42,637 nt of DNA, taken from positions 1 through 42,637 of the forward strand of contig JAKURV010000018.1 in assembly GCA_022452035.1 (NCBI GenBank). Direction: 5' to 3'. Numbering within the stretch: the stretch's first letter is position 1; each line of letters opens with the position of its first letter. Below the pieces are notes generated by a model. That model did not search any database. It was given only the letters and a program-made list of their open reading frames with translations, and was not told the origin of the DNA. Position numbers and translations under genes: made by a program. This document shows positions 2-18,478 of this stretch, in pieces. The DNA comes from Acidimicrobiales bacterium. GTDB lineage: Bacteria > Actinomycetota > Acidimicrobiia > Acidimicrobiales > MedAcidi-G1.

Positions 2-415
2 ACCTGGCAGCAGGAGAAGATGCGGGTCGACGACGCCGTCGGGGCGGTCGCCGTCCACGGCTGGACCGGTTTCCTGGGTGTTCTGCTCATGGGCATCTTT
101 GCCAGCGGCTACCCCGCCGCCTCCGGCGCCGGAAACCAGGTCGATGTCACCATCCTCGGCCAGCTAGTCGGCATCGCTGCTCTGCTGCCCTTGGCCTTCC
201 TCTCCGGTTACATCATCTCGTGGTTGCTGAAGCAGGGGAACCTGCTCCGCGTACCACCTGAGGTCGAGCTCGAAGGTCTCGACGTCGCCGAGTTTGGTGG
301 CGATTTCTATCCGGACTTCGGCGCTAGCGACGAGGTCATTGTGGAAGCCGATGGCAGCGAAGTATCGGCAGGACCGGTGCTCGCCCAAGCGGCCAATCAA
401 CTCATCCGCGGTTGA
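2..415 (+). CDS. amt: Ammonium transporter Amt, C-terminal part (5' end outside window)
   Basis: This is the last ~137 codons of an Amt/Mep/Rh channel for ammonium or methylammonium in the cytoplasmic membrane. The frame is open from the window edge, so the start lies upstream. The segment VDDAVGAVAVHGWTG matches the Amt pore region, with the His of VHG (codon near 56) in the place of the second pore histidine. Two further hydrophobic segments follow (VLLMGIFASGY and LVGIAALLPLAFLSGYIISWLL), then an acidic cytosolic tail of about 55 residues. The stop is 3 nt before the next small gene, so they are probably cotranscribed. Next to methylamine genes the channel may recapture or import ammonium or methylammonium released by demethylation; that role is inference. 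Family assignment is firm. Confidence 0.88.
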   Translation, partial: TWQQEKMRVDDAVGAVAVHGWTGFLGVLLMGIFASGYPAASGAGNQVDVTILGQLVGIAALLPLAFLSGYIISWLLKQGNLLRVPPEVELEGLDVAEFGGDFYPDFGASDEVIVEADGSEVSAGPVLAQAANQLIRG

Positions 416-418
416 TCG

Positions 419-544
419 ATGCTTGAACTCATTGGGGCCATCGCACTGATGTACGCCGTCGTCTTGGCGGCGGGCATCTGGGCGACCCGTAAGTCGAAGG
501 CCCTACGTGAGTTGGCAGAGAACGACATCGAAAATTCAATTTGA
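419..544 (+). CDS. 41-aa single-span membrane protein
   Basis: This short gene starts 3 nt after the amt stop and encodes 41 residues: a hydrophobic helix at about residues 4-22 (IGAIALMYAVVLAAGIW), then a positively charged segment (TRKSKALREL), which predicts the N-terminus outside and the C-terminus in the cytoplasm. I recognise no family. It is credible as a gene because it fits tightly between amt and the next small gene and has a clear transmembrane pattern with positive residues on one side. No good Shine-Dalgarno sequence is visible at its start, so translation may be coupled to amt. It could be a small accessory subunit of the transporter, which is speculation. Confidence 0.55.
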   Translation: MLELIGAIALMYAVVLAAGIWATRKSKALRELAENDIENSI

Positions 545-562
545 GAAGGAGTGTGAACCTAT

Positions 563-799
563 ATGGACACCTTTCCCTACGCCGATTGGGCTGAGGCACT
601 CGAAGCGAATGGTGCGATCTATACCTGGGCCGACAACGAGAGCGCGATCTTCGTGCTCACGGCCCTGGGGATTGCAGCGTTCGTGCTGAGCCTCGTCCAC
701 ATCATGAGGAGTGAGGATCGGAACCTCAACCACGCGGCCGCTCGTTTGGCCGCCAAGAGTGCACCGAGTGCACCGAGTGCACCGATGGGAGGTGAGTGA
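563..799 (+). CDS. 78-aa small membrane protein of the amt cluster
   Basis: The gene encodes 78 residues. An acidic, aromatic N-terminus (MDTFPYADWAEALEAN) is followed by one transmembrane helix at about residues 28-48 (AIFVLTALGIAAFVLSLVHIM) and a charged tail that ends in a Ser-Ala-Pro repeat. The start is well supported by the ribosome site GAGAAGGAG at 543-551, which overlaps the stop of the upstream small gene. The tail repeat is three exact copies of a 9-bp unit (GTGCACCGA, about 761-787). I do not recognise the family. It lies in a run of four short membrane-protein genes between amt and a sarcosine-oxidase-like gene, with 18 nt upstream and 1 nt downstream spacing, which argues for a single operon. 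Confidence 0.65.
   Translation: MDTFPYADWAEALEANGAIYTWADNESAIFVLTALGIAAFVLSLVHIMRSEDRNLNHAAARLAAKSAPSAPSAPMGGE
761..787 (+). repeat. 9-bp tandem repeat (x3) in the small amt-cluster gene
   Basis: Three consecutive copies of GTGCACCGA encode SAP-SAP-SAP at the C-terminus of the 78-aa protein. It is a simple slippage-type repeat, in frame, and would change only tail length. Confidence 0.8.
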
Positions 800-800
800 G

Positions 801-968
801 ATGGCCGGTAAGCAGGTCGAGTTTCCTGAGAACCACACGCATAAGAAGAGTTATGAGCGTGGGATGCTGCTCTTCAGCCTTGCGTGCATCGTGTTTGTCA
901 TCATCGCCGTGAACGTCGTCAGTGGCCCCACGTGCGATCCCGACGTGACCTGGGCGATGTCCTGCTAA
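801..968 (+). CDS. 55-aa small membrane protein of the amt cluster
   Basis: A 55-residue protein with a basic/His-rich N-terminus (MAGKQVEFPENHTHKKSYERG), one transmembrane helix at about residues 24-42 (MLLFSLACIVFVIIAVNVV) and a short tail with two cysteines (PTCDP and MSC at the extreme C-terminus). The ATG lies 1 nt after the upstream stop, with GGAGGTGAG at 789-797 as the ribosome site; a longer version starting at 711 would overlap the preceding gene and lacks a site. Family unknown. The two outward-facing cysteines could form a disulphide or bind metal, but nothing here tests that. Confidence 0.6.
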   Translation: MAGKQVEFPENHTHKKSYERGMLLFSLACIVFVIIAVNVVSGPTCDPDVTWAMSC

Positions 969-1007: not shown

Positions 1008-1361
1008 ATGCCGGCGGCGGTGCGCCTCCGAGTTGCGGAGGTCGCCGCCGCCGTCATCGTCATCTCGGTGTTTTTGCCCTGGGTGGTCGAGGACGGACGG
1101 ACCCTGCGGGGCGTTCAGGTCGGCCAGGGGCAGTTAGTTGTCCTTACGGCGGTGGCAACCATCGTGCTGATCCGTCTTCGTAAGCGCCTGTCGTGGTTTG
1201 CGGCTGGCTTTTCGGCAGCTGTGCTGTGGCGGCAGTTGTTCGACGGAGCTGACGGCCTTCGAAGCCTGGGCCCCCTGTTGGGGGCTTTGGCGGCAACGAC
1301 GGCTGTCGTCTTCCTGGTGTGGCACCTGCTGGCCGAGATCCGAGAGAACGCTGAGAGGTGA
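1008..1361 (+). CDS. 117-aa four-helix membrane protein, unknown function
   Basis: This encodes a 117-residue protein with about four hydrophobic segments: residues 10-27 (AEVAAAVIVISVFLPWVV), 42-58, 63-78 and 87-107 (LGPLLGALAATTAVVFLVWHL). I recognise no motif. The ATG follows a purine-rich GTAGAAGAA repeat that can act as a weak ribosome site. The stop codon (1359-1361) falls within the possible ribosome site of the next gene, so translational coupling to the FAD oxidoreductase is likely. Being fourth in the row of short membrane proteins behind amt suggests a shared membrane role, which is inference. Confidence 0.65.
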   Translation: MPAAVRLRVAEVAAAVIVISVFLPWVVEDGRTLRGVQVGQGQLVVLTAVATIVLIRLRKRLSWFAAGFSAAVLWRQLFDGADGLRSLGPLLGALAATTAVVFLVWHLLAEIRENAER

Positions 1362-1389: not shown

Positions 1390-2565
1390 ATGACCCCCGG
1401 TTCCTACGACGTCGTGGTGGTCGGGGCAGGCATGCTCGGTGCTTCGGCCGCCCGACACCTAGCCGATGGCGGATGCGCTGTGGCCTTGGTCGGTGAGGCT
1501 GAGCCGGACGACCCCAAGGTGCACGACGGCGTTTTCGCCAGCCATCACGACATCGGCCGGGTCAGCCGGACCATCGATCCCGATCCCGTCCGGGCTTGGC
1601 TGGGGTACCGAGCGGTCGCCCAGTTCGCCGACCTCGCGGCACGTACCGGGATCCGGGCCGTTTACGGGGTCGGACACCTCTGGGTAGAGGCCGCTGATGG
1701 CCTGGAGGCCCTGGTCGCCGCCGACCGCCGGTTCTCGCTGGGCTGCATCCGTCGGAGCGCTGCGGACACCATGGCCGCCATCCCCTACCTCTCCCTGCCC
1801 GCGGAACTAGACACCCTGTGGGAGCCGCCCCCGGCCGGGTGGGTGGATCCGCGGGCCTACGTGCGGTCCGAGAAGGCAGCGCTCGAGGGCGCCGGGGCGA
1901 CAGTCCTGGACACCCTGGTCGGCTCGGTGGTTTCGGTCGACGGGGCCGTGGAAGTCCGGACTGAATCCGAAACAGTGGTCGGCAACCGCGTGCTGTTGGC
2001 CACCGGGGCCTTCTCGGGCTTCGGCGAGACGCCGGCGGCCGGGTTGGACGTCGAGTACGCCCTCCACACCCAGCGGTATCTCCAGTTGGACGACGACGAG
2101 GCGTCTCGTCTGGCCGGCATGCCGAGCATCATCGCCAAGAGCCCTGATCCAGAAGAGGACTTCTACCTCACCCCGCCGACCGTCGACCCCCGGGGCCGGA
2201 CTGTCCTGAAGGTCGGCAAACCCCAGGACGACCACGTGCGGGCGTCGGCGACCGATCTGGCGGCCTGGTATCGGACCGACGGCGACCCAGCATTTGCTAG
2301 CCGCCTTGACCGGACGATCGGTGGCCTCCTTCCCGGCTTACGGTGGCTCGACCGGTGGACGACCTCGTGTGTCACCGCCTACACGCCGACCGGGCACCCA
2401 ATGATCGACGCGTTGGACGACCGGGTCTTCTGCTGCATCGGCGGCAACGGCTACGCGGCCAAGTGCGCTCCTGCCCTCGGCGAGTTGGCTGCAGGAATGC
2501 TGCTCGGAAACTCCTGGCCGAGCGAGGTCGACCGGGACCTCTTCCGGGCCTCCTTCGCAGCCTGA
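1390..2565 (+). CDS. FAD-dependent oxidoreductase, sarcosine oxidase (MSOX/SolA)-like
   Basis: A 391-residue DAO-family flavoprotein. The N-terminal dinucleotide-binding motif VVVGAGMLGASAARHLA is at residues 9-25, and the C-terminal FAD-binding segment GGNGYAAKCAPALGELAAG lies near the end, as in monomeric sarcosine oxidase and N-methyltryptophan oxidase. Length also fits that family (about 390). Such enzymes oxidatively remove an N-methyl group, giving formaldehyde. Two starts are possible: ATG at 1390, or GTG at 1369 in the same frame with GAGAGGTGAG (1353-1361) correctly spaced; the GTG adds seven residues. The gene ends in a strong hairpin facing tdm. Beside Amt and TMAO genes it may act on sarcosine, dimethylglycine or another secondary or tertiary methylamine; the exact substrate cannot be read from sequence. 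Confidence 0.82.
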   Translation: MTPGSYDVVVVGAGMLGASAARHLADGGCAVALVGEAEPDDPKVHDGVFASHHDIGRVSRTIDPDPVRAWLGYRAVAQFADLAARTGIRAVYGVGHLWVEAADGLEALVAADRRFSLGCIRRSAADTMAAIPYLSLPAELDTLWEPPPAGWVDPRAYVRSEKAALEGAGATVLDTLVGSVVSVDGAVEVRTESETVVGNRVLLATGAFSGFGETPAAGLDVEYALHTQRYLQLDDDEASRLAGMPSIIAKSPDPEEDFYLTPPTVDPRGRTVLKVGKPQDDHVRASATDLAAWYRTDGDPAFASRLDRTIGGLLPGLRWLDRWTTSCVTAYTPTGHPMIDALDDRVFCCIGGNGYAAKCAPALGELAAGMLLGNSWPSEVDRDLFRASFAA

Positions 2566-2598: not shown

Positions 2599-2600
2599 AA

Positions 2601-4958
2601 TCAGGCCCGTACTCTCTCCTTATCCGGGTCGTAGTGCGGGAACCGCACCACGGTGGCCGGGAGGCGCTTCTGGTGGCCGTCCATCTTCCCTACCTCCACA
2701 GCGGTGCCGATCTCAGCGTGCTCCACGGCCATCCGACACAGGGCGATGTTCTTACCGAGTATGGGGGAGCGGGTCCCGCTGGTGATCGTGCCCACTTGCT
2801 GGCGGCCGACCATGACCATGTCGCCGTTACCGGCCGGATCATCGCCGGACAACTCCAAGCCGACCAGGGTCCGCTGGGGGTGTTCCTTGCCGCGGACCAG
2901 GGCATCGCGACCGATGAAGTCGTCCTCCTTGGTCTTGAGTGGCACGGTGAAGCCGATGCCGGCCTCGAACGGGTTGGTCTGATCGCAGAACTCGTAGCCG
3001 GCGAAAATCAGGCCGGCCTCGATCCGCAGCATGTCCAGGGCTTCCAGCCCGAGAGGGGTCAGGCCCTTTGGCTGGCCGATGGCCCAGATGGCGTCCCACA
3101 CCGTCTCGGCGTCTGACGGGTGACAGAACACCTCGAAACCCAGCTCGCCGGTGTAGCCGGTACGCGACACCACGATCGGGACACCGTGCTCGTCTCCGAT
3201 ACGGGCCACCGACAGCCGGAACCAACCAAGTTCCTCAATCGTTGGTTGGTCGGGTCGGGTCCAGACCACCTCGGACAGGATCTCCCGGCTGAGAGGTCCC
3301 TGAACCTGCACGTTGTGGAGCTGGTCGGTGGAGTCCCGGACCCAGGCGTGGAGGCCGAGTTCTTTCGCCTGTTTGCGCAACCACAGGCCGCTGGCGTCCG
3401 AGCCGCCGATCCACCGGAAGTTGTCCTGGCCCAGGCGGTACACCGTTCCGTCGTCGATCATGCCGCCGGTGTCGTAGCACATGGCCGTATAAACAACCTG
3501 GCCGATGGCCAGCTTCCGGATATTGCGGGTCACACAGGTCTGAAGCAGGATTTCGGCATCGGGTCCGAGGACCTCGTACTTGCGGAGTGGAGACAGGTCG
3601 ATGATCCCGGCCTTCTGGCGGGTGGCCCAGTACTCGTCGATGGCTCCGTGCCCGGTGTAGCTGTTAGCCAGCCAATAGCCGGCGTACTCGGTGAAGTTCC
3701 GGGTCAGCGCAGAGGTCCGGGAGTGGAAGCCGGTCTCCTTGGTCAGTTCGGGGTCGGCATCGGTAGACATGCGAAAGGCCGTCGCTTTCTTGAAGGTGTT
3801 GGTCGCCGGATAGACGCGGAGATGTATGTCGGTGGGTTGCCAGCCGTTGGCGGCGTCGATATCGCACGGACAGGCCGACGAGACGCAAACCAGGTCGGTC
3901 AGCGCCCGCAACAGGACGTAGTCGCCGGGACGTGACCAGGGCTCCTCGAAGTACATCTGGTTCGCGTCGTCAAGGTTGGTGTTGTAGAAAAAGTTGATGG
4001 CCTCCCAGCCGCGCCGGGGAGCGATGTCGTAGGGCGCCAGGACCCGGTTGAAGTTGTCGCTGCAGTTGATGTGACCCGGGTAGCCCATGTCCTCGTAGTA
4101 CTTGGCGTTACACGCAGTGTTGAAGGTGTCGTGGCGGCCCACGGTGTCATGGACAACCTCCACCATGGGTTGGAAGTCCAGTGTGTAGTACTTGGCGTAG
4201 AGGCCTGGCATGGGGTAACTCGCGCCCATCAGGCTGCGGGTGATGGTGGCGTCCAGCGCCGCCTCCACGCCACCATCCAGTCGGGTGGCGTCGAAGCACT
4301 GGAAGTCGGAGCACTCCCTGCCCTCCACGTCGATGATCTGGATGAACTCACCGGCCTTCACCTCGTAGGTCCGGGCGGTGGCAGCAGGCACCCGCAGGTC
4401 CTGGTTCTGGTCGGCCAGGGGAGTAGGGAGGACCTCCAGGCCGGGTGCCGGGGGAGCGGTCCGGTGGACGAACGTGATGACGTCGGTCGGCGGGTTCTGC
4501 TCGTCGGGCGACATCTTTGAGCCGGGTACACCGATTACACAGACCACGTCGGCCGACGCGGTCAACCATGCCGTTTCCGCAGCCGGGGAATCGGGGGCGA
4601 ACAGGTGGACCGCGGTAGCCGAGCCCAGATCGATCCCCTTTACGGCAAGGGCGTCGGCCACCCGCTGAGCGTCGTGCTGGTTTCCGGACAGGATCGCCGC
4701 GATGCCGGTCGCCGGAGCGCCCGACGACTCGCCGAGTAGACCTGGGTCGGAGTTCCCGTTGCGGTCGAAGGCTGCCACCTCGACTGGTTGACAGCCCTCG
4801 GGGTCGATGACTTCCAGGCGGTCGCCGGGCCCGAGCAGTACCGCGGTGACGGCCCCTCCGGTGATCCGGTAGCGCTCGATACCGGGCTCGAAGTTGGCCA
4901 TTCCCGGCATGAGCAGGCGGGGCCCCTCGGCCACCGTGATCGTCATCCTCGCCCCCAT
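2601..4958 (-). CDS. tdm: Trimethylamine-N-oxide demethylase (Tdm)
   Basis: TMAO demethylase (aldolase) cleaves TMAO into dimethylamine and formaldehyde. The protein is 785 residues from ATG 4958 (alternative ATG 4946, four residues shorter). About residues 190-400 form the DUF1989-type domain with cysteines at 216, 221, 283, 299, 358, 363 and 365. Cys283, Cys299 and the CPC pair 363/365 have the spacing I recall for the zinc site of the Methylocella silvestris enzyme. Residues 430-770 are a GcvT-like tetrahydrofolate-binding domain (TGYTGELGFEV near 600), expected to catch the formaldehyde. Total size and two-domain order match Tdm. It is transcribed alone, convergent with the FAD oxidase and divergent from gmaS. 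Start choice is uncertain because the upstream frame stays open to 5174 but runs into the promoter region. Confidence 0.92.
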   Translation of the reverse strand: MGARMTITVAEGPRLLMPGMANFEPGIERYRITGGAVTAVLLGPGDRLEVIDPEGCQPVEVAAFDRNGNSDPGLLGESSGAPATGIAAILSGNQHDAQRVADALAVKGIDLGSATAVHLFAPDSPAAETAWLTASADVVCVIGVPGSKMSPDEQNPPTDVITFVHRTAPPAPGLEVLPTPLADQNQDLRVPAATARTYEVKAGEFIQIIDVEGRECSDFQCFDATRLDGGVEAALDATITRSLMGASYPMPGLYAKYYTLDFQPMVEVVHDTVGRHDTFNTACNAKYYEDMGYPGHINCSDNFNRVLAPYDIAPRRGWEAINFFYNTNLDDANQMYFEEPWSRPGDYVLLRALTDLVCVSSACPCDIDAANGWQPTDIHLRVYPATNTFKKATAFRMSTDADPELTKETGFHSRTSALTRNFTEYAGYWLANSYTGHGAIDEYWATRQKAGIIDLSPLRKYEVLGPDAEILLQTCVTRNIRKLAIGQVVYTAMCYDTGGMIDDGTVYRLGQDNFRWIGGSDASGLWLRKQAKELGLHAWVRDSTDQLHNVQVQGPLSREILSEVVWTRPDQPTIEELGWFRLSVARIGDEHGVPIVVSRTGYTGELGFEVFCHPSDAETVWDAIWAIGQPKGLTPLGLEALDMLRIEAGLIFAGYEFCDQTNPFEAGIGFTVPLKTKEDDFIGRDALVRGKEHPQRTLVGLELSGDDPAGNGDMVMVGRQQVGTITSGTRSPILGKNIALCRMAVEHAEIGTAVEVGKMDGHQKRLPATVVRFPHYDPDKERVRA

Positions 4959-5197: not shown

Positions 5198-6607
5198 ATG
5201 ACCGACATCCAGGCCTTCATCGAGGCTGAGGGGCGCGCCGAGCAGGTCGCCGAGGTCCAGAAGCGGATCGAGGCGGAGGGCATCCAGTACCTGTACTGCC
5301 AGTTCGTGTCCGTCACCGGGCGCATCATGGGCAAGGGCATCCCAGCCAAGCATTTCGGCACCATCGCCAACAAGGGCTTCCAACTGGTCTACGGATCCAC
5401 AGCCAACCTGTTCGTCGATCGGCACGGGGAATACATCGGCTACGGCCCGGAGTCACGCGAGCTGGTCGGCGTAGCCGAGGTCGACACCTTCATGAAGCTT
5501 CCTTGGGACCCCAAGACGGCCCGGGTTTTCTGCACTCTGTTCCGGGGTCGTGAGGAAGAGGTCGACGGCGGCATGTTCCTCACGTCGGACTGCCGTGGCA
5601 ACCTGCACCGCATCCACAAGGCCTTCGAGGAGAAGACCGGCCTTCATCTGCGTGCCGGGACCGAGCCGGAGATGATGTGGCTCAAGGCCGACGCCGATGG
5701 CAAGCCCACCGTGGAGGGCATGACCAAGCCGAACTGCTACCACATCGACCAGTTTGCCGAGCTCCAGCCGCTCATTCACAAGGTGGTCGAGTACAGCGAG
5801 GCCATGGGACTGGACATGATCCAGGGTGACCACGAGGACGCTCCGGGTCAGCTCGAACTCAATTTCAACTTCGACCGGGCCGACCTTACGGCCGACCGGC
5901 TCACCACCTACCGCCAGATCTGCAAGCAGGTCGGTCGCGAGATGGGTGCCTTCCCGTGCTTCATGCCCAAGCCCTTCATGGGCGTGTCGGCCAACGGCTG
6001 CCACCACAACATCTCCCTGTGGACCGGCGAACCCGACGAGGGTGGCGAGAACAAGTTCATGCCCGAAGGCGATAACCCGCAGATCCCCGGTGAGATCGGA
6101 ATGAAGGCCATCGGCGGGATCATGGAGCACCTCGATGCGCTGACCTGCCTGGGCTCACCGACCGTCAACTCGTATCGGCGCCTCTGGGACACCGGCTTCT
6201 GGGCACCCGTCTATGCCGACTGGGGCTTCCAGAACCGCACCACTGCCCTCCGGATCAGCGCGCCGGGACGGTTCGAGTACCGGTCCGTGGACTCGGCGGT
6301 CAACCCCTACCTGTCCTTTGCGGGTCTCCTCAAGGCCATGGAGGACGGGCTGGATCGCAACCTGGATCCTGGCCCGCCCGAGGAGCGCAACATCTACGAG
6401 GCCATGGAAGAAGGCAAGGAAGTCAAGAAGATCCCGATGCACCTTGGTGAGGCCCTGGATGCTCTGAGGGCCGACGAGGTTATAAAGAGCGCTCTTCCCA
6501 ATGAGATGTTCAAGGTCTTCGAGCACTACAAGCGCGACGAGTGGGAGCGCTTCATGCACACCGTGACTGACTGGGACGTCGAGGAGTATCTCGACATTCT
6601 CCCGTAG
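5198..6607 (+). CDS. gmaS: Gamma-glutamylmethylamide synthetase (GmaS)
   Basis: A glutamine-synthetase-fold ligase joining methylamine to glutamate with ATP, giving gamma-glutamylmethylamide, the first step of the indirect methylamine pathway. The 469-residue protein carries GS signatures in order: TEPEMMW (155-161), the GDHEDAPGQLELNF stretch (210-223), NGCHHNISLW (266-275, nucleotide/metal), NSYRRLW (324-330) and RFEYRS (358-363). Sequence alone cannot fully separate GmaS from GlnA type III-like enzymes, but the neighbours tdm, mgsABC and tmm make GmaS the best reading. ATG 5198 has AGGGGGAG at 5186-5193 as a ribosome site; an upstream ATG at 5096 would place the N-terminus within the promoter. 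It heads the gmaS-mgsABC operon. Confidence 0.9.
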   Translation: MTDIQAFIEAEGRAEQVAEVQKRIEAEGIQYLYCQFVSVTGRIMGKGIPAKHFGTIANKGFQLVYGSTANLFVDRHGEYIGYGPESRELVGVAEVDTFMKLPWDPKTARVFCTLFRGREEEVDGGMFLTSDCRGNLHRIHKAFEEKTGLHLRAGTEPEMMWLKADADGKPTVEGMTKPNCYHIDQFAELQPLIHKVVEYSEAMGLDMIQGDHEDAPGQLELNFNFDRADLTADRLTTYRQICKQVGREMGAFPCFMPKPFMGVSANGCHHNISLWTGEPDEGGENKFMPEGDNPQIPGEIGMKAIGGIMEHLDALTCLGSPTVNSYRRLWDTGFWAPVYADWGFQNRTTALRISAPGRFEYRSVDSAVNPYLSFAGLLKAMEDGLDRNLDPGPPEERNIYEAMEEGKEVKKIPMHLGEALDALRADEVIKSALPNEMFKVFEHYKRDEWERFMHTVTDWDVEEYLDILP

Positions 6608-6684: not shown

Positions 6685-7614
6685 ATGTGCGGCATTGCCG
6701 GCATCATCCATCGTGACGGCCCGTCTGACATCGGCGACGAGCTCACCGCGATGCTCAACTCCATGAAGCACCGGGGCCCCGACTCCACGGGCTACGCCAT
6801 TTACGGACCACCCGACGAAATGGTCGTCGTGCGGTTCATGCTGGCCGAGCCGAACGACTACACGGGATTCGGCATGGAGGAGAAGCTGGAGCGCAACCGG
6901 GCTGAGGTCGAGTCCAGGCTGGCCAAGATCGGCGCCGACCTGGCCACCATCCAGAACGAGACCGGCTACGCCTTCCGAGCCACCATCCGATACGGGGGCG
7001 ACCTCAAGCCGCTGGCCGATTACCTGGAAGATATCGACGGCTGCAAGGTGCTCTCGCTGGGTAACTCCCTAGAGATCATCAAGGACCTGGGCGACGCCAA
7101 CACGGTGCACGAGCAGTATGGGCTGGCGAACATGCCGGGCACGCACGGCATCGGGCACGTTCGCATGGCTACCGAGTCCGACGTTGATCTGGCCAGTGCC
7201 CACCCCTACTGGGCCTACCCGTTCGCCGACGTGGCGGTCGTGCACAATGGCCAGCTCACCAACTACCACGTGTGGCGGCGTCGTCTCGAGCGGATGGGTC
7301 ACCGGTTCCAGTCCGAGTGCGATTCCGAGATCATCGCCGTGTACCTGGCTCAGCACCTCGAGGACGGCCTGCCGCTCGAGACAGCCATGAAGCACAGCCT
7401 CGACGATTTCGACGGCGTATTTACATACCTGGTTGCCACCGGCAGCGAGCTGGGCATCGCTAAGGACGAGATGGCTGCCAAGCCGCTGGTGCTCATGGAG
7501 TCCGACAATCTGGTGGCGATGGCCTCCGAGGAGATTGCCATCCGGGCGCTCGTCGGAACCGAGGTGGAGACCAGGGATCCGTTCGAGCGGGAGGTGCTGA
7601 CGTGGCAGGTCTGA
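6685..7614 (+). CDS. mgsA: N-methylglutamate synthase subunit A (class II glutamine amidotransferase)
   Basis: A 309-residue class II (Ntn) glutamine amidotransferase domain. The protein begins MCGIAG, so Met removal exposes the catalytic Cys, and contains the family stretches HRGPDSTGYA (about 30-39), GHVRMATES (about 158-166) and VVHNGQLTNY (about 183-192). In methylotrophs MgsA provides the amidase half of N-methylglutamate synthase: it hydrolyses gamma-glutamylmethylamide so that methylamine passes to MgsC with 2-oxoglutarate. A separate amidotransferase, GXGXG and FMN-synthase set in three consecutive genes is the mgsABC signature, unlike the fused GltB. The last codons overlap mgsB by 13 nt, pointing to translational coupling. 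Confidence 0.9.
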   Translation: MCGIAGIIHRDGPSDIGDELTAMLNSMKHRGPDSTGYAIYGPPDEMVVVRFMLAEPNDYTGFGMEEKLERNRAEVESRLAKIGADLATIQNETGYAFRATIRYGGDLKPLADYLEDIDGCKVLSLGNSLEIIKDLGDANTVHEQYGLANMPGTHGIGHVRMATESDVDLASAHPYWAYPFADVAVVHNGQLTNYHVWRRRLERMGHRFQSECDSEIIAVYLAQHLEDGLPLETAMKHSLDDFDGVFTYLVATGSELGIAKDEMAAKPLVLMESDNLVAMASEEIAIRALVGTEVETRDPFEREVLTWQV

Positions 7615-9844: not shown

Positions 9845-10267
9845 ATGAGTGACAAGCGCAGCGTCGCCATCGACGCCGAACAGCTGGCCGGCAAGCGGTT
9901 CGAGTACCAGGAAGACATTTCTCTCGTCGAGGACCTCGACCTGATGGAGTTGACTCCCGGCAAGGACCTCAACTGGCTGGAGGACATCCACCTCCTAGAG
10001 GAGGACAACACCCCCGCCGTGTTCGATCGCAACTCCAACTCGTTCCTCAAGATCTACTTCAACATCCCGGAGGGCCGCGAGGACGAGATCGCCCGCAAGG
10101 TGCTGATGAAGCACCTCATCTCGGGCAACTCCTACGGCATCCAGCTAAAGGAGAAGCACTGCAAGTTTCACCAAGTCGAGCTTGGCCCATGGGTGGCCGA
10201 CTCCAAGTCGGTCGGCGACAATTACCAGCCCCCAGTGCTCGAGGGCTGGGAAGCCCCTGCCCACTAA
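9845..10267 (+). CDS. 140-aa acidic protein of unknown family, downstream of mgsC
   Basis: A 140-residue soluble protein I cannot assign. The N-terminal half is strongly acidic with an internally repetitive pattern (SLVEDLDLMEL, then NWLEDIHLLEEDN, about residues 25-58). The C-terminal half looks globular (FLKIYFNIPEGREDEIARKV; GNSYGIQLKEKHCKFHQVE) and ends Pro-rich. There is no signal peptide or transmembrane segment. It starts 5 nt after the mgsC stop with AAGGA at 9839-9843, so it is part of the same operon, ahead of a SoxB-like FAD enzyme. It may be an accessory subunit of N-methylglutamate synthase or of the FAD dehydrogenase; both are inference from position only. Confidence 0.8.
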   Translation: MSDKRSVAIDAEQLAGKRFEYQEDISLVEDLDLMELTPGKDLNWLEDIHLLEEDNTPAVFDRNSNSFLKIYFNIPEGREDEIARKVLMKHLISGNSYGIQLKEKHCKFHQVELGPWVADSKSVGDNYQPPVLEGWEAPAH

Positions 10268-11825: not shown

Positions 11826-13184
11826 TCAGCCGCCGCCCTCCGGGGCCTCGTCCAGGAGGTAGGTCGCCATGGAGTCGTCCATCGCCTCCATCCACGGAGT
11901 GTGGTGGATCGGTGCCTCCGTGCCGGTCAGCGTTGACGGAAAGCCGAGGTTGCGGTAGCCCATGATGTCGGCGTTCTTGTGGCCCTTCCACTCCTTGAAC
12001 ATCCGGTTCACCTCGCCGATGTTGAAGTCGGGGTAGTCGGTGGCATCGACCAGTTCCTGCGTGTAGTCGCCCTGGAAGTCGATCTCTTCGTAGGCGGTCT
12101 CCAGGGCCTCCTCGCGCTCGAGCCACCTGGAGCTGTCGGCCGCCATCTCGGCAGCTGACGGCAACTCGATGCGTCCCAGCATCACATCTCGGGCCCACCA
12201 GGCCTGAGCGTCGAACATATTGAACGTGTAGTACTGGTCCTGCATCCCTAGGTAGAAGAGTTTTGGGTTCCGCTCCCAGGCCACTCCCTTGTAGAGCCCG
12301 GGCGTCCAAAGGCGGTTCTTCGTCTCAAGGCGAAGGTCGTCGGGCATGAACGGGAAGTGATGCAAGTAGCCGGTACACAGGATGATGGCCTGCACATCTC
12401 GGGTCTGGCCGTCGACGAAGTGGGCGGTGTTGCCGTCCACGTGGGTCAGGATCGGAAACTCTTCCCAGTTGTCCGGCCAGTCGAAGCCCATCGTGCCGGC
12501 GCGTGATGTGCAGTAGATGTTTCTAGCGCCGTACTTGTGGCACTGGGACCCGATGTCCTCGGCTGAATAACTGGCTCCCATGATGAGGATGTCCTTGCCG
12601 GCGAACTCCACGGCATCTCGGAAGTCGTGGGCGTGCAGGATCCGCCCCAGGAACTTCTCGAATCCCGGGTAGTGGGGCACGTTGGGTACCGAGAAATGTC
12701 CAGTGGCCACGACGACGTAATCAAACTCCTCGGAGCTGACGGTGCCGACCTTTAGGTCATGGGCGGTCACCGTGAACTGGCCGGTCGCGTCGTCGTAGGA
12801 CACGTCGCGAACCGGGGTCCGGAACCGGATCTGGTCGCGGACCTTGCTCTTCTCGACGCGCCCCTTGATGTAGTCCCAGAGGACTTCCCGCGGCGGATAG
12901 GAGGCGATGGGCTTCCCGAAGTGCTCCTCGAAGCCATAGTCGGCGAACTCCAGGCACTCCTTCGGACCGTTAGACCACAGGTACCTGTACATCGAGCCGT
13001 GGACGGGCTCGCCGTACTCGTCGACCCCGGTGCGCCACGTGTAGTTCCACAGGCCGCCCCAGTCTTCCTGCTTCTCGTAGCACACCAGATCGGGGATCTC
13101 GGTCCCGTCGGCCGCCGCCGAGGCAAAGGCCCGCAACTGAGCCAGGCCGCTCGGGCCCGCGCCGAGGATGGCCACTCTGGTCAT
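11826..13184 (-). CDS. tmm: Trimethylamine monooxygenase (Tmm)
   Basis: A bacterial flavin-containing monooxygenase oxidising trimethylamine to TMAO with NADPH and oxygen. The 452-residue length is that of known Tmm proteins. It has the FAD motif ILGAGPSGL (6-14), the [12 protein letters not shown] stretch (37-48), the FMO signature region [13 protein letters not shown] (158-170) and the NADPH motif [11 protein letters not shown] (202-212). Start ATG 13184 is fixed by a strong ribosome site, GGGAGGA, at 13191-13197. It is the last gene of tmoW-tmoV-tmm, 22 nt behind tmoV, so TMAO import and TMAO formation are co-expressed. Its product feeds Tdm. Other class B monooxygenases are possible, but length, motifs and neighbours agree on Tmm. 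Confidence 0.93.
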
Positions 13185-13206: not shown

Positions 13207-16200
13207 TCAGGAGATGAGGCCGAGTTGACGCTTGCGCTTGTCGGCCCATTCTGAGATCAGCACATCAGATGCCATGCCTATACAGGCCACGGCAATGCCG
13301 GCGACGATGGCCCGGCCACTGTCGATGTTGGGCTGCGCCTCGATGAGTTCCCGGGCCAGCCCCGTGGTCTTGATGAGTCCGGCGATCATGACCATGAAGA
13401 GGCCAAACATGATTGTCTGGTTGACGCCGAGCATGATTTCCGGCACGGCCATCGGCAATTTCACCTTCCAGAGGGTCTGCCGTCGGGTACAGCCGGCCAT
13501 TGTGGACGCCTCGACCAGTGGCGCCGGCACGTTCTGGATGCCGAAGATCGTGTACCGGATGGCCGGTACGGATGCGGAGAGGACCACGGCAACGATGATC
13601 GCCGTTTCGGAGACGTCGAAGAACATGATGGCCGGAAATAGGTAGACGAACGACGGGAAGGTCTGGAAGAAGTCGAGGAACACTTGCACTGCCGTGTTGC
13701 GTCGCGCGGTAGTTGCCGCCCAGATCCCGAACGGAACGCCGAAGACGATTGCCAGCAACACGGCAAAGGTCAGCTGGTAGAAGTTCCACATGGCCTGCCA
13801 CCAGAACCCGGCGAGGGAGATGAAGGCGACCATGCCCGCGGCCATCAGGGCGGGTCGGCGACCGTTGATGAAGTATCCGACCACACCGAAGAGCAGGACG
13901 AGGCCCACCCACGGAACGGTGAGGTAGGCGTCGCGCATGGGCAGCAGGACCCAGGACTCGAGATAATCCCGGAAGGTGATGGTGATGTCGCGGAGGTTGA
14001 CGGTGAAGGATTCGTCGATGGTTCGGAGGGTCACCCAGCCAAGCGCCACGATCGCCGTCATGACTGCCGTCCAGGTGAAACGCAGCGACTGTTGGGCCTG
14101 CGCGGTGGCCGCGAGGTCCGAGTTGTCCTCCTCGGAGGCCTGGGTCAGCAGCCTGGTTCGTACCGAAGAGCCGTACGCTAAGGCGGCGACGCCGGCCACC
14201 ACGAAGACGTAGATCCACGGCTTTGTGGAGAGGTGCAGGAAGTCGAAGAGATCGACGGACCATCCCACCAGGGTCACGGCGGTCGCAGCGAAGAGCCAGC
14301 GGTAGCGCCGGGTGTCCCAGGCTCTCCACCCGGCGACTGCGATGGCGGCCAGGAAGAGCACCAGCCACCGACCACCGGACAGGTGCCACCACGCCACATC
14401 GCTCTTGCCATTATCCACGAGGAATTCCCAAACGCCCTCATGGCCCCGCATCCACGAGTTGGGAACACGGAAGGCGGCATCCCAGGCTTGGGCCAGAAGG
14501 AGACCGCCCACCACCACGGCCCCCGTGGCCAGGAGGTAAGGGTGGCGTTTCCAGAAAGGCGCGCCCTCTGCGTGGCGGGTCGGTTGGAGCCGACCCAGCG
14601 CCTGGCTGAGGCGATCCAGGGTGATGGCCATGACGACGATGGCGATCCCGATCTCCGTTCCGGCGCCGATGTGGAGTCCCGTAAGACGGAACAGGAGGTC
14701 CTGCCCCAGGCCGGCAGTGCCGACGAAGGACGCAATGACCACCATGGCCAGGCACTCCATCACCACCTGGTTGATGCCAACCAGGAGGGAGTGGCGGGCG
14801 GCGGGCAACTCAACCTTCCACAGCATCTGCCGTCGTGTACAGCCGCCCATGATCCCCGCCTCGATGACCTCACTCGAGATCCCCTGGATGCCGAGGATCG
14901 TCACCCGGGCCATTGGCGGGATGGCGTAGGCGATCGTGGCGATGACACCCGCCTTGTGCGAGAGGCCGATGAACACGCCGATCGGGATGAGGAAGGTGAA
15001 GTGCGGGAAGGCCTGGGTCAGGTTCATGATCGGGATCAGGAACTGTTCGACCCGACGTCGCTTGGCAGCCACCAGACCGATGAGGCCTCCGAGCAGGGCG
15101 GCGATCGGAACGGCCACCAGGACCGCGGACAGCGTGATCATCGTCTTGTCCCAGCGCGTCTCCGCTCCGGCCTGTTCCGCAGGTTCACCAACGAAGGCGG
15201 CGTAGAGAATGAATCCGACCGACAGGAGGGTGAGGCGCCAGCCACCCAGCTTCCAACCGACGACACCGAAGAGGCCGGCAATCACGATCCACGGCAGTGC
15301 GGGAATATGCCATGGCTCGTAGAGGCTCACCACGGCCATCCAGCCCAACAGCAGGGTCGTTACGGCTAGGGGGGTGCTCCGGCGTTGCCAGGCCAGCCAG
15401 CCTGCGCCACCGACTAGGAGGACGAAGATGAACAGCCACGGCATGTCGGGTAGGTGCCACGGCCCGTAGCCGCTGATGAGGAGCCCTTCGGTGACGTCCA
15501 GGGGGAACTCCAGCCATCGTGCGACCTGGCGGAAGAAGGCCTTGACGTTGAAGGACTCCTCGTTGGTCTGCAGGGCCAACCATCCGATGGTGGCGACGGT
15601 TGCGGTCGCCGCCGTCCATCCGAACGTCCGATTCTGCAGAGTCCGGGCCGCCGAGGCGATGCCGAGCACCAAGAAGACGTAGACCCACGGCGTTGTGGGA
15701 ACGTGCAGGAAGTCCAACAGGTCGAACGACCAGCCCATCCATGCCACGGCCACGGTGGCCATCAGCCAACGGTTGCTACGGGTACGCCAGGCCATCCAGC
15801 CGGCCGCTCCGAGGCAGGCCAGTAGGACCAACAGCCACGGCCCCTTGGAGAGGTGCCACGCCACGGTGAACTGGAAGAACTCTTCGTAGCGGAGATGGTC
15901 GAACCAGGTGTTCACCCACCCCGTGGCCTTGTAACTGACGCTGGCGAAGCCGTCCCGGCCCGCAAAGTTGAACCAGTCGACGGTCCAGGTCCGCGGAACC
16001 CGGTACAGCCACTCAAGCGCCGCGGACTCCCCTTCGTACTTGCCAGTTCGAGTGATGTGGTGTGACCCGAGCCGCCACCAGGCGAACCACAGAATCAGGA
16101 ACGGGCCGAAGGCAATCGCCGACTTCTGGCGACTGGAGAGTTGTTTCGCTGGTCCGTCGGCCGAAGCAGCGTCAGAGGTGTCGAGGGGCTCGGCCGTGGT

Positions 16201-16212
16201 CTGATCCGTCAT
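13207..16212 (-). CDS. tmoV: TMAO ABC transporter permease TmoV, duplicated fused form
   Basis: A 1001-residue membrane protein with two ProW-type ABC permease domains in one chain. Each has an EAA loop: [20 protein letters not shown] (451-470) and [20 protein letters not shown] (901-920). Each permease domain is preceded by a hydrophobic/aromatic extension, and these also match: [20 protein letters not shown] (160-179) with [20 protein letters not shown] (650-669). The whole protein is thus a tandem duplication of a ~450-residue unit, so one polypeptide supplies both halves of the channel. In Ruegeria pomeroyi the TMAO importer is TmoXWV. The gene lies between tmoW (10-nt gap) and tmm (22-nt gap). 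A glycine-betaine/choline specificity is the main alternative; the tmm, tdm neighbours favour TMAO. Confidence 0.85.
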
Positions 16213-16222
16213 GGCCTGGTGA

Positions 16223-17233
16223 TCACTCGGACTCGAAGAGCGCTTCGTTCACCTGCGCAGCGGTGATCGAGCCGACAACCTCGCCGTCTTCGACCACCCT
16301 CAGCGGGACCGTGGAGCTGAGAATCTGACTGGCCACCGACGCCACAAACACGCGACCGTCGACCTCGCCCTCGGCGTCATCCGAGGCTGAACCCATCAGG
16401 GTATGAACCCGGAGCAACTTGGCCCGAGAGACGTTCTTGGTAAACGCCGCGACGTAGTCCGAACCCGGGTTGGTGATCAACTCCTCAGCGGTGCCCAACT
16501 GGTCGATCACCCCGTCGCGCATGATGGCGATCCGGTCAGCGAGACGGATGGCCTCGTCGAAGTCGTGCGTGATGAAGATGATCGTCTTCTGCAACGTCGA
16601 CTGGAGCCGGAGGAACTCATCTTGCATATCGCGTCGGATGAGGGCATCGAGGGCGGAGAACGGCTCATCGAGGAACCAGACATCAGGCTCAACAGCCAGT
16701 GAGCGACCGATGCCGACACGCTGCTGCTGTCCGCCGGAAAGTTCCCTGGGGTAGTAATCGCCCCGTCCGTGCAGCCCGACGAGATCGATGATCTCGAGGG
16801 CCCGCTCGTTCCGGGTGGCCAGGTCGACACCCTGGACTTCAAGCGGAAAGGCAACATTTTCGAGCACCGTGCGGTGCGGAAACAGTGCGAAGTGCTGGAA
16901 CACCATGCCCATCTTGTGCCGGCGAAGTTCGACCAACTCCCGTTCGGAGGCGGCACGCAGGTCCTCGCCGTCGAAGTCGATCTCGCCGGCGGTCGGCTCG
17001 ATGAGACGAGACATGCAGCGGACGAGGGTGGACTTCCCCGAGCCACTCAGACCCATCAGCACGACGAGCTCACCCTCGTGGACCTCCAGCGAGGCGTTTC
17101 GAACGGCGGGGATGTAGCCGCCCTCCTTGATGGTGGTCAGGTCGGGCTCACCGTCATGGGACGCCAGAAACTTTTCGGGATCTGGCCCGTAGAGCTTCCA
17201 GACGTTCCGGCAGGCGAGCTTGGGCTGGTTCAT
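16223..17233 (-). CDS. tmoW: TMAO ABC transporter ATP-binding protein TmoW
   Basis: A 336-residue ProV-type ABC ATPase: Walker A GLSGSGKST (60-68), Q-loop VFQHFALFPHRT, signature LSGGQQQR, Walker B VWFLDEPFSALD and switch FITHDFDEA. The N-terminus has the insertion usual in quaternary-amine importers (KLYGPDPEKF...), and the last ~60 residues resemble a degenerate CBS-like regulatory part (VASQILSSTVPLRVVEDGEVVG). It is the first gene of tmoW-tmoV-tmm. No periplasmic binding protein (tmoX) gene is in the window, so the solute receptor must be encoded elsewhere or in the part outside the window. Specificity for TMAO is inferred from neighbours. Confidence 0.87.
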   Translation of the reverse strand: MNQPKLACRNVWKLYGPDPEKFLASHDGEPDLTTIKEGGYIPAVRNASLEVHEGELVVLMGLSGSGKSTLVRCMSRLIEPTAGEIDFDGEDLRAASERELVELRRHKMGMVFQHFALFPHRTVLENVAFPLEVQGVDLATRNERALEIIDLVGLHGRGDYYPRELSGGQQQRVGIGRSLAVEPDVWFLDEPFSALDALIRRDMQDEFLRLQSTLQKTIIFITHDFDEAIRLADRIAIMRDGVIDQLGTAEELITNPGSDYVAAFTKNVSRAKLLRVHTLMGSASDDAEGEVDGRVFVASVASQILSSTVPLRVVEDGEVVGSITAAQVNEALFESE

Positions 17234-17359
17234 CGCGTCGAACCTCGTCGGGAAACCGGCGGTCCGGCTGGCCGCCGCACTCTAGTGCTGAAAAGGAAAC
17301 AGCGCCCTAGCCACTGATAGGTTCCGCGGCCGTCCGGGATCGACAGGGGAGAGCGAACC

Positions 17360-18478
17360 GTGAAGATCGCCGAGGTTGACGTGTTTCAGCACGACCTCCC
17401 CGTGCGAGGGCCCGAGCAGGGTGTTCCGTACCGGATGGCCCTCCAGGACCAATGGCATCTGGACACCACCATCGTGCGCCTCGCCTGCGACGACGGCACG
17501 GTCGGATACGGCGAGACCTGTCCGCTGGGATCGACCTACCAGCCCGAGCATGCCCTAGGCGCCCGAGCCGCCCTGGCGGAGATGGCTTCTCACCTGATCG
17601 GCTTGGATCCCACGGCCATCGGTCGGGTGAACTCCGCTATGGACGAGGTGCTGATGGGACACCGGTACGCCAAGGCGGCCGTCGATGTGGCCTGCTGGGA
17701 TGCCACAGGCAAGGCCTACGGGATCCGGGTCTGTGACTTGCTGGGCGGCGCGGTCCGGGAACGGGTGCCGTCGTACCACGGCGTTCTGATCGCCTCGCCG
17801 GAAGACTCCGCAGCGGACGCTGACCGACGACAGGCCGAGGGCTTCCCGCGGATCCAGCTCAAAGTGGGAGGTCGTCCGGTGGCCGACGATGTCGCCGCGC
17901 TACGGGCCGTGGCGGCGACCCTGCGGCCTGGGGTTCGCCTGTCGGCCGACGCCAACAAGGGGTGGACCACCCGCGACGCCATCCAGGTTTCCCGGGCCTG
18001 TCGTGACATAGCGATGGTGCTCGAGCAGCCCTGCCTGAGCTACGAGGAGACGGCTTCGCTGGTAGGGAAGGTCTGCCATCCGATCTACCTCGACGAGTCG
18101 GCTACCGACCTGATGGCCGTGGTGACGGCCATCAGCCAACGGGTGGCCGACGGGTTCGGCATGAAGGTCTCTCGGGTCGGGGGCATCAGCGCCATGCGGG
18201 CTGTGCGCGACGTGTGCGCGGCGGCCCGTCGGCCCCACACGGTCGACGACACCTGGGGGGGCGACCTGGTCGCCGCGGCCAGCCTGCACGTGGGAGCCAC
18301 AGTGGACCCGGCGAACTTCGAGGGAACTTGGATCGCCGAGCCTTACGTGGACGGCCACTACGACGATAAGCATGGGATCCACCTGGACAGGGGCTGGATC
18401 GACCTGCCCCCTGGCCCGGGCCTGGGTATCACCCCGGACGAGTCCCAGTGGGGCGATCCGGTGATGTCGTTCCGCTGA
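17360..18478 (+). CDS. Mandelate racemase/muconate lactonising family enzyme, hydroxyproline-betaine epimerase (HpbD)-like
   Basis: A 372-residue enolase-superfamily protein. Catalytic layout is complete: Lys168 (QLKVGG), metal ligands Asp197 (SADANKG), Glu222 (LEQP) and Asp245 (YLDES), and the second base Lys269 (GMKVSRVGG). The two-lysine pair suits a proton-exchange reaction at an alpha-carbon. The N-terminus (AEVDVFQHDLPV), GETCPLGSTYQPEHALGARA and the end GLGITPDES are, from memory, like the proline-betaine/4-hydroxyproline-betaine 2-epimerases and cis-3-hydroxyproline dehydratases. A betaine substrate would fit the N-methyl context. Start is GTG with AGGGGAGAG at 17345-17353. Divergent from tmoW with 126 bp between; shared regulation is possible. 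Exact substrate unproven. Confidence 0.75.
   Translation: MKIAEVDVFQHDLPVRGPEQGVPYRMALQDQWHLDTTIVRLACDDGTVGYGETCPLGSTYQPEHALGARAALAEMASHLIGLDPTAIGRVNSAMDEVLMGHRYAKAAVDVACWDATGKAYGIRVCDLLGGAVRERVPSYHGVLIASPEDSAADADRRQAEGFPRIQLKVGGRPVADDVAALRAVAATLRPGVRLSADANKGWTTRDAIQVSRACRDIAMVLEQPCLSYEETASLVGKVCHPIYLDESATDLMAVVTAISQRVADGFGMKVSRVGGISAMRAVRDVCAAARRPHTVDDTWGGDLVAAASLHVGATVDPANFEGTWIAEPYVDGHYDDKHGIHLDRGWIDLPPGPGLGITPDESQWGDPVMSFR

What the first reader, a model, noticed from the sequence alone, without database searches (positions are those of the whole stretch)
2..18478. Near-complete TMA/TMAO catabolic island in an actinobacterium, with a non-canonical parts list
tdm, gmaS, mgsABC, tmm and tmoVW are together, but three expected components are absent: dmmDABC (dimethylamine to monomethylamine), mgdABCD (N-methylglutamate dehydrogenase) and tmoX (binding protein). 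Two FAD oxidoreductases, an Amt, five unknown small proteins and a betaine-epimerase-like enzyme are present instead. TMAO pathways are best described in alphaproteobacteria, so this may be a distinct actinobacterial version.
Basis: partly seen in the sequence, partly recalled or inferred. Interest (0 to 1): 0.8.

Follow-up and report, generated by a model that had tools for sequence, protein, structure and literature searches.

The report
Candidate missing route for dimethylamine breakdown
A marine actinobacterium carries genes for using the fish-odour compounds TMA and TMAO together with an apparently undescribed duplicate set of glutamate-linked amine genes, shared with the very abundant ocean bacterium SAR11, that may perform the dimethylamine step for which those bacteria had no known enzyme.

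Summary
The island is real: tdm and tmm pass curated cut-offs, and it recurs in relatives. The DmmB family has no match in the 96%-complete genome. A tmoX homologue lies at another contig's edge, a Sox/Mgd-type four-gene set on contig C6.

The 'gmaS-mgsABC' here is not the canonical monomethylamine set but a separate paralogous module ('type II': gmaS2-mgsA2B2C2, an unknown 140-aa protein sp140, usually a SoxB-like flavoenzyme, DAO2), split from canonical GmaS and MgsC at 100/100. It is not actinobacterial: alpha-, gamma- and deltaproteobacteria have it. In 385 genomes of one class, its marker sp140 is in 26 of 34 with tdm and 11 of 351 without; DmmB-family genes are in 0 of those 26 against 5 of the other 8.

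Best explanation, inferred: dimethylamine becomes gamma-glutamyl-dimethylamide, N,N-dimethylglutamate, N-methylglutamate (DAO2), then glutamate. SAR11 lacks Dmm yet grows on TMAO nitrogen; ten paper searches found no such route. No activity was tested.

The parts
2..415 (+). C-terminal part of an ammonium/methylammonium transporter (Amt), cut by the contig start
   Evidence: PF00909 1.2e-17; same stretch in relatives
419..544 (+). small protein sp41, unknown
   Evidence: ORF; conserved after amt in relatives
563..799 (+). small protein sp78, unknown
   Evidence: ORF; conserved; no Pfam above cut-off
801..968 (+). small protein sp55, unknown
   Evidence: ORF; conserved; only a COX2-TM match below cut-off
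1008..1361 (+). protein sp117, unknown
   Evidence: ORF; conserved; no Pfam match
1390..2565 (+). DAO1: monomeric sarcosine oxidase / N-methyltryptophan oxidase-like flavoenzyme; lineage-restricted
   Evidence: PF01266 101 bits; monomeric sarcosine oxidases nearest by sequence among solved structures; found only in family f1 islands among the loci compared
2601..4946 (-). tdm, TMAO demethylase
   Evidence: NF053776 1226.6 bits over cut-off 1100; DUF1989 + GCV_T + GCV_T_C
5198..6607 (+). gmaS2: type II glutamate-alkylamine ligase, proposed for dimethylamine
   Evidence: Gln-synt_C; TIGR03105 322.5 bits, below cut-off 469.6; type II clade 100/100; catalytic residues kept, neighbours changed
6685..7614 (+). 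mgsA2: glutamine-amidotransferase-like subunit, keeps N-terminal MCGIAG
   Evidence: GATase_6 64.4 bits; 35% to Paracoccus alcaliphilus MgsA
7602..8393 (+). mgsB2: GXGXG subunit
   Evidence: PF01493 42.8 bits
8406..9839 (+). mgsC2: FMN glutamate-synthase-like subunit
   Evidence: PF01645 308.8 bits; type II clade 100/100
9845..10267 (+). sp140: unknown protein, constant neighbour of mgsC2; marker of the type II module
   Evidence: next to mgsC2 in 53 of 53 sp140 loci compared; no Pfam match over cut-off; no PDB fold match under E 0.001 for a low-confidence model
10388..11740 (+). DAO2: SoxB-like FAD enzyme, proposed N,N-dimethylglutamate demethylase
   Evidence: PF01266 132 bits; best structure matches are sarcosine oxidase beta subunits, followed by a proline dehydrogenase, an L-amino acid deaminase and dimethylglycine oxidase; within 9 kb of sp140 in 25 of 28 loci with room to see it
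11826..13184 (-). tmm, trimethylamine monooxygenase
   Evidence: NF058570 812 bits over cut-off 675
13207..16212 (-). tmoW-like ABC permease, 1001 aa, two permease domains
   Evidence: BPD_transp_1 two stretches
16223..17233 (-). tmoV-like ABC ATPase
   Evidence: PF00005 120 bits; 53% to the HTCC1062 counterpart

Best explanation
The island takes up and breaks down TMA/TMAO. Tmm makes TMAO and Tdm makes dimethylamine (DMA) plus formaldehyde. Instead of being demethylated by DmmDABC, DMA is then captured by a paralogue of the N-methylglutamate pathway. GmaS2 ligates DMA to glutamate (gamma-glutamyl-dimethylamide). MgsA2B2C2 with sp140 transfers it onto 2-oxoglutarate, giving N,N-dimethylglutamate. 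DAO2 oxidatively removes one methyl to give N-methylglutamate, and DAO2 or the Sox/Mgd-type heterotetramer removes the last, leaving the nitrogen in glutamate; free monomethylamine need never appear. Shown: the module exists as a separate clade, is linked to tdm, is distributed in near-complement to DmmB-family genes in one class, keeps the GmaS catalytic residues, and lies after tdm in SAR11. Inferred: every substrate and product, the role of sp140, and which enzyme does the last demethylation.
For: Two-type split of GmaS and MgsC at 100/100. Marker sp140 in 26 of 34 tdm+ but 11 of 351 tdm- genomes of one class (Fisher 7e-25). Among the 34 tdm+, the DmmB family (E up to 1e-30) is in 0 of 26 sp140+ and 5 of 8 sp140- (p 2e-4; 0.0015 if the weak hit of G171 is not counted; not corrected for kinship). 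29 of 69 type II genomes also keep canonical MgsC, including HTCC1062, and 40 have type II alone, while 8 chosen genomes with tdm and a DmmB-family gene (already known to lack sp140) have canonical MgsC alone; so type II is not just a replacement for methylamine. Residues Lys30', Tyr147, Gln175, Asp177, Glu179, Glu186 and Asn188 are kept in all 58 type II GmaS rows (52 distinct) while the second shell changes uniformly (A48V, Y174I, N176G, N182P, F185L). Canonical GmaS already accepts DMA weakly (Km 16 mM against 27 micromolar for methylamine; PMC7948447 passages). DAO2's best structure matches include enzymes that oxidise N-methyl amino acids. HTCC1062 grows on TMAO nitrogen without dmm, and the authors suppose an unknown Dmm isoenzyme (PMC8918994 passages).
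Against: No biochemistry. The co-occurrence counts are not phylogenetically independent. sp140 is missing from 8 of 34 tdm+ genomes of the class, 3 of which also lack the DmmB family (G322, G407, G481); G089 and G140 in the mixed set likewise have neither. In the mixed set of 70 tdm+ genomes, 10 with sp140 also have some PF11927 hit, three of them Acidimicrobiales or Acidimicrobiaceae by record title (G100, G106, G110); only one of the ten (G115) was looked at and is a lone 28% paralogue. DAO2 is not seen in 15 of 53 type II loci, 3 of them with 6.5 kb on both sides, so another demethylase would be needed there. 11 sp140+ genomes of the class have no tdm. The DAO2 model is middling (pLDDT 70) and its structure matches have TM-scores of only about 0.5 and also include proline dehydrogenase and L-amino acid deaminase. 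27 of the 38 type II-only genomes that were in both calls hold a GSIII over the GmaS cut-off, which could feed Mgs2 with the methylamine product.
Confidence: 0.6

Rival explanations
1. Type II is a second monomethylamine route: GmaS2-Mgs2 make N-methylglutamate, DAO2 replaces MgdABCD, and an unrelated, unidentified enzyme turns dimethylamine into methylamine.
For: Same domain set as the canonical route; catalytic residues kept; 40 of 69 type II genomes have no canonical MgsC, so type II may serve methylamine there, and 27 of the 38 tested hold a GSIII over the GmaS cut-off.
Against: 29 of 69 keep both sets, among them 4 of the 7 genomes of the SAR11 order given, side by side in HTCC1062; does not explain the complementarity with DmmB or the linkage to tdm.
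Confidence: 0.2
2. Type II handles another amine altogether (a longer or branched alkylamine), and its linkage to tdm reflects shared regulation in marine bacteria.
For: Canonical GmaS is promiscuous: ethylamine, propylamine (PMC7948447 passages); 11 sp140+ genomes of the class lack tdm; in Roseovarius the set lies away from tdm.
Against: 26 of 34 tdm+ against 11 of 351 tdm- genomes carry it; it lies directly after tdm in HTCC1062 and in other SAR11 loci.
Confidence: 0.12
3. In this lineage DAO1, the monomeric sarcosine oxidase-like enzyme beside tdm, oxidises dimethylamine to methylamine, and type II then handles methylamine.
For: DAO1 is adjacent to tdm in 13 of the 14 islands of the genus that were mapped (all but G007) and belongs to the N-methyl amine oxidase family.
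Against: Not found in the tdm loci of other Acidimicrobiales families or of Proteobacteria with the same type II module, and only fragments in three genus g4 islands.
Confidence: 0.05

Closest known systems
Indirect methylamine (N-methylglutamate) pathway: GmaS, MgsABC, MgdABCD
   Same: Same domain set; GmaS catalytic residues kept; MgsA keeps its N-terminal cysteine
   Different: Separate clades at 100/100; 29% (GmaS), 35% (MgsA), 34% (MgsB) and 54% (MgsC) identity to Paracoccus alcaliphilus; GmaS under the TIGR03105 cut-off; extra sp140; SoxB-like DAO2 where others have MgdABCD; linked to tdm
DmmDABC dimethylamine monooxygenase step of Ruegeria and Rhizobium
   Same: Would occupy the same pathway slot after Tdm, judged by distribution
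   Different: Different protein families; the proposed chemistry is glutamylation and flavin oxidation, not monooxygenation
Heterotetrameric sarcosine oxidase beta subunit and dimethylglycine oxidase
   Same: DAO2's best matches by sequence and by predicted structure are the beta subunits; dimethylglycine oxidase is also among them
   Different: 24-26% identity to own SoxB and to MgdA over 188 and 227 residues of 450; no alpha, gamma or delta partners recognised in the island; no folate domain
SAR11 (HTCC1062) TMAO cluster in PMC3160333 and PMC8918994
   Same: tdm, a 116-aa protein, DAO2, gmaS2, mgsA2B2C2, sp140, amt in this order; DAO2 corresponds by position and kind to SAR11_1304, named monomeric sarcosine oxidase in the passages read (my inference)
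   Different: The passages read treat only the canonical set (SAR11_1313 to 1316) and leave the enzyme for dimethylamine open

Membership tests
TMAO demethylase Tdm | passes the curated equivalog model and has DUF1989 + folate-binding GCV_T domains | tested here: met
   1226.6 bits, cut-off 1100; domains
Trimethylamine monooxygenase Tmm | passes the curated equivalog model | tested here: met
   812 bits, cut-off 675
Canonical GmaS | TIGR03105 cut-off | tested here: not met
   322.5 bits, cut-off 469.6
Canonical GmaS | falls in the canonical clade | tested here: not met
   separate clade, 100/100
Canonical GmaS | catalytic Asp177 and Glu186 and the amine-pocket residues named in PMC7948447 | tested here: met
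   all 58 type II rows (52 distinct)
Canonical GmaS | methylamine as best substrate | not testable with these tools
   needs enzyme assay
N-methylglutamate synthase MgsABC | GATase, GXGXG and FMN synthase proteins in one operon-like run | tested here: met
   order
N-methylglutamate synthase MgsABC | MgsC in the canonical clade | tested here: not met
   own MgsC 54% to the canonical Acidimicrobial P0001, canonical copies at least 71%
MgdABCD N-methylglutamate dehydrogenase | four subunits beside gmaS/mgs | tested here: not met
   none among the island's frames; the genome's only SoxG match is on C6, in a soxBDAG-type set 42% (SoxB/MgdA) and 35% (SoxA/MgdC) identical to Paracoccus alcaliphilus
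DmmDABC | DmmB/HODM alpha family PF11927 | tested here: not met
   no match in the own genome
DmmDABC | DmmA, DmmC and DmmD | not tested
   not searched in the whole own genome; one search used them only on the loci
TmoXVW transporter | OpuAC binding protein with V and W | tested here: inconclusive
   V and W in the window; OpuAC domain on C31 inside a multi-domain binding protein at a contig edge

The most novel reading that the evidence does not exclude
The type II module is a complete, previously undescribed dimethylamine assimilation pathway through gamma-glutamyl-dimethylamide and N,N-dimethylglutamate. It bypasses free methylamine and supplies the step missing from SAR11, so the supposed 'dimethylamine bottleneck' of ocean methylamine cycling would not exist where this module is present.
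Probability: 0.5. Interest if true: 0.93.

Novelty: new variant of a known kind. Interest (0 to 1): 0.85.

Why it matters
PMC5520151 (abstract, distribution and discussion sections read) infers from the absence of dmmDABC in SAR11 and other abundant marine bacteria that dimethylamine breakdown is a genetic bottleneck that may feed marine aerosols. PMC8918994 (passages read) then shows HTCC1062 growing on TMAO nitrogen without dmm and supposes an unknown isoenzyme. A concrete gene set sitting after tdm makes that question testable with enzyme assays and a mutant rescue, gives markers (sp140, mgsC2) to recount the bottleneck in metagenomes, and means that gmaS surveys may merge two enzymes.

Tried and rejected
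Rejected: 'actinobacterial version' (module shared across phyla). Rejected: DAO1 as the general dimethylamine enzyme (family-restricted). Rejected: sp140 as a DAO2 subunit in the first place, because it follows mgsC2 in 53 of 53 loci while DAO2 is seen in 38 of 53. Set aside without proof: enolase-family gene and P450 as pathway parts (several relatives' contigs end there). Led nowhere: sp140 fold (pLDDT 58, no PDB match with E under 0.001); plasmid searches for sp140 (E up to 1e-3) and DAO2 (E up to 1e-15) gave no match. I could not decide whether the C6 soxBDAG set is sarcosine oxidase or N-methylglutamate dehydrogenase; it lies beside a Rieske-type gene (read by eye), and a SoxA-like match in a frame of about 960 aa also occurs in several relatives without a full tdm.

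Choices behind the counts; 80 handles, namely 20 tdm+ and 10 tdm- relatives and 50 of the 80 loci (those with at least 12 kb held, less ten that I dropped, nine of them Rhizobiales and one Roseovarius by title, and less L084 and L090, which were present as G010 and G081). Six of the ten dropped loci (L144, L148, L153, L158, L159, L163) carry dmm and show no type II gene in the stretch held, so dropping them did not favour my reading. Of the 10 tdm- relatives 3 have sp140 (G005, G015, G024) and 2 others have a PF11927 hit (G018, G034). Of the ten sp140+ tdm+ genomes with a PF11927 hit only G115 was examined. Two of the ten sp140-negative tdm+ genomes (G003, G102) have the type II cluster cut by a contig end, and G011 counts as sp140+ on a partial match. 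I chose the 80 genomes; type I and type II were told apart by identity to P0001 (71% and more, 55% and less), and six genomes hold a further copy at 52-55% that I did not place; six duplicate loci were dropped; only 28 of the 53 loci had 6.5 kb on both sides; eight outlying or ambiguous GmaS-like rows were left out of the type counts (five Acidimicrobial GSIII rows, the Aquabacterium row, two distant glutamine-synthetase rows), three of the Acidimicrobial rows being shown apart; the 58 type II rows hold 52 distinct sequences; near-identical rows were removed; the program warned of long branches meeting inside the GmaS tree. The class of G121 and the order of G355 are taken as Alphaproteobacteria and SAR11 from the title of L118 and from the contig length of G535, not from a label in the output.

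Papers: PMC5520151 abstract and two sections read, plus passages; PMC3160333, PMC7948447, PMC8918994, PMC13390433 and PMC8437039 passages only; all other papers only as search listings. The nitrogen-limitation paper cited by PMC5520151 was not held. Recalled, from no call: the HTCC1062 and HIMB59 genome sizes, the Mgd/Sox subunit naming, and the masses in the next steps. The plasmid records annotate the four genes beside gmaS as sarcosine oxidase subunits; calling them Mgd is my reading of their place.

Full report
What is there. The window is the whole contig C18 (42637 bases) of a 2.18 Mb, 96.1%-complete genome in 65 contigs, and it begins inside an Amt gene. From left to right: amt (cut), four small proteins, DAO1, tdm, gmaS-like, mgsABC-like, a 140-aa protein (sp140), DAO2, tmm, tmoW, tmoV, an enolase-family gene and a P450. 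Tdm and Tmm pass curated equivalog cut-offs. In a search of the genome and 99 relatives, 20 of 100 genomes have a Tdm over its cut-off. The order of genes recurs in the relatives fetched, with the piece mgsABC-sp140-DAO2 intact in the other Acidimicrobiales families G081 and G064.

The three absences. (1) dmm: PF11927 (DmmB) has no match in the own genome or in the 19 other tdm-carrying relatives given to by G handle. Three further genomes reached through loci and titled Acidimicrobiales or Acidimicrobiaceae (G100, G106, G110) do have weaker hits besides sp140, not examined. DmmA, C and D were not searched genome-wide. (2) mgd: none among the island's frames; a soxB-D-A-G-type set lies on C6, 42% (beta) and 35% (alpha) identical to the corresponding proteins beside gmaS in Paracoccus alcaliphilus. 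It could be sarcosine oxidase or Mgd. (3) tmoX: the own genome has an OpuAC domain at the very edge of contig C31 inside a multi-domain binding protein, 95% identical to a copy just before tmoV in G006. So the transporter is probably complete and split by assembly or rearrangement.

The paralogous module. tdm loci from 80 named records showed that GmaS, MgsA, MgsB and MgsC near tdm fall in two kinds: the kind in the window, and the canonical kind that stands beside a four-gene set annotated as sarcosine oxidase (which I read as mgdABCD) in Paracoccus, Thioclava and Ponticoccus plasmids. Some loci (L138, L161, L119) carry both. Trees split the kinds at 100/100 for GmaS (23 against 19 rows, one row unplaced) and MgsC (18 against 13 rows) (the program warned of long branches within the GmaS tree). 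Identities of the window proteins to P. alcaliphilus: GmaS 29%, MgsA 35%, MgsB 34%, MgsC 54%. I call the window's kind type II. sp140 stands next to mgsC2 in 53 of 53 sp140 loci compared; of 28 loci with at least 6.5 kb on both sides, 28 have gmaS2, 25 have DAO2 within 9 kb and 20 have tdm.

Distribution. In an even sample of 385 genomes of the class of G121 (Alphaproteobacteria by the title of L118), tdm is in 34, sp140 in 37, PF11927 at E up to 1e-30 in 46. sp140 occurs in 26 of 34 tdm+ and 11 of 351 tdm- genomes. Among tdm+, PF11927 occurs in 0 of 26 sp140+ and 5 of 8 sp140- genomes; none of the 37 sp140+ genomes has it (Fisher tests, not corrected for kinship; one of the five, G171, is a weak hit, and without it p is 0.0015). 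In a mixed set of 70 tdm+ genomes, 60 have sp140. Ten of these 60 have some PF11927 hit; the strongest (G115) is a lone paralogue, and the other nine were not examined. Canonical MgsC is in 39 and type II in 69 of 80 chosen genomes: both in 29, type II only in 40 (own genome included), canonical only in 10, neither in 1. Eight of the ten canonical-only genomes are the ones chosen for tdm plus a DmmB-family gene, already known to lack sp140.

SAR11. In the order of G355, 67 of 147 genomes have sp140; these are of about 0.8 to 1.5 Mb. One, G535, has a single contig of 1,308,759 bases, the size I recall for HTCC1062. Its order is tmm, tmoWV, tmoX, tdm, a 116-aa protein (which I take for a regulator), DAO2, gmaS2, mgsA2B2C2, sp140, amt, then canonical mgsABC and canonical gmaS. 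This agrees with PMC3160333 (passages), where SAR11_1303 is an aminomethyltransferase, SAR11_1304 a 'monomeric sarcosine oxidase' beside it, and SAR11_1313-1316 the canonical set; the type II genes between them are not discussed in the passages read. Of seven genomes of this order given, four have both MgsC kinds and three (G355, G544, G546) only type II. PMC5520151 reports that SAR11 lacks dmmDABC; PMC8918994 reports growth of HTCC1062 on TMAO as sole nitrogen source and supposes a Dmm isoenzyme. The type II genes are the obvious candidate.

Mechanism. The residues that PMC7948447 assigns to amine binding and catalysis in canonical GmaS (Lys30', Tyr147, Gln175, Asp177, Glu179, Glu186, Asn188) are kept in all 58 type II rows (52 distinct sequences), while their neighbours change uniformly (A48V, Y174I, N176G, N182P, F185L) (numbering carried over through P. 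alcaliphilus and slipping by about two later in the chain). That paper also gives a Km for dimethylamine of 16 mM against 27 micromolar for methylamine in the canonical enzyme, so glutamylation of dimethylamine has a precedent and would need retuning. MgsA2 keeps its N-terminal cysteine. The synthase would then reduce an iminium of 2-oxoglutarate and dimethylamine to N,N-dimethylglutamate (inference). DAO2 belongs to PF01266; its best solved matches are sarcosine oxidase beta subunits, with proline dehydrogenase, L-amino acid deaminase and dimethylglycine oxidase next (TM-scores about 0.5). The sarcosine and dimethylglycine enzymes demethylate secondary and tertiary N-methyl amino acids, which fits N,N-dimethylglutamate (inference). 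Such a route ends in glutamate without free methylamine, which would explain why 40 of 69 type II genomes can do without canonical MgsC; but 27 of the 38 of them tested hold a GSIII over the GmaS cut-off, so use of methylamine by type II Mgs is not excluded.

Limits. No activity is shown. Some tdm+ genomes have neither sp140 nor PF11927 (G322, G407, G481, G089, G140). DAO2 is not universal. sp140 has no assigned function: no Pfam match over cut-off, none at all for the L138 copy, poor model, no fold match. Novelty rests on ten paper searches of an open-licence library without preprints or most subscription journals; none listed a paper that by title or abstract start concerns gamma-glutamyl-dimethylamide or N,N-dimethylglutamate in methylamine catabolism (the 16 papers are on other subjects by title). 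A description outside that library cannot be excluded.

Noticed in passing
window 2-1361: amt followed by four small proteins (41, 78, 55, 117 aa) is a recurring unit next to or near tdm in the genus and in other Acidimicrobiales loci (G081, G064, L097, L103, L106); function unknown; no hit in the proteobacterial loci at the E limit used, which is harsh for such short proteins.
   Followed up: partly
L298:1-2994 (own contig C31): A very long binding protein joining PnrA-like, SBP_bac_3 and OpuAC domains; its OpuAC start repeats at the contig end, suggesting a tandem repeat that broke the assembly, as G006 has two OpuAC copies in a row before tmoV.
   Followed up: partly
L298:13223-14602: A second GSIII-type ligase over the TIGR03105 cut-off in the own genome, with Ala where canonical GmaS has Gln175; in G012 and G021 it stands beside canonical mgsABC, on the own contig not.
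   Followed up: partly
G103, G122, G230, G342, G344, G512: Six genomes hold one more MgsC-like copy at 52-55% identity to canonical MgsC, besides the type II copy next to sp140; possibly a third kind.
   Followed up: no
L234:4354-4689 and 10446-10781: Gammaproteobacterium G107 carries two sp140 genes in one locus.
   Followed up: no
L231:4466-9943: Roseovarius has the type II gmaS2-mgsABC-sp140 set away from tdm and without DAO2 nearby, followed by a carbon-nitrogen-hydrolase-looking gene (read by eye).
   Followed up: no
window 13207-16212: tmoW here is one 1001-aa protein with two permease domains; the HTCC1062 tmoW reading frame is 717 aa.
   Followed up: no
L044:7538-8200, L048:7226-7858, L058:8705-9352: Shortened DAO1 remnants beside DAO2 in genus g4, suggesting that DAO1 is decaying or dispensable there.
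   Followed up: no
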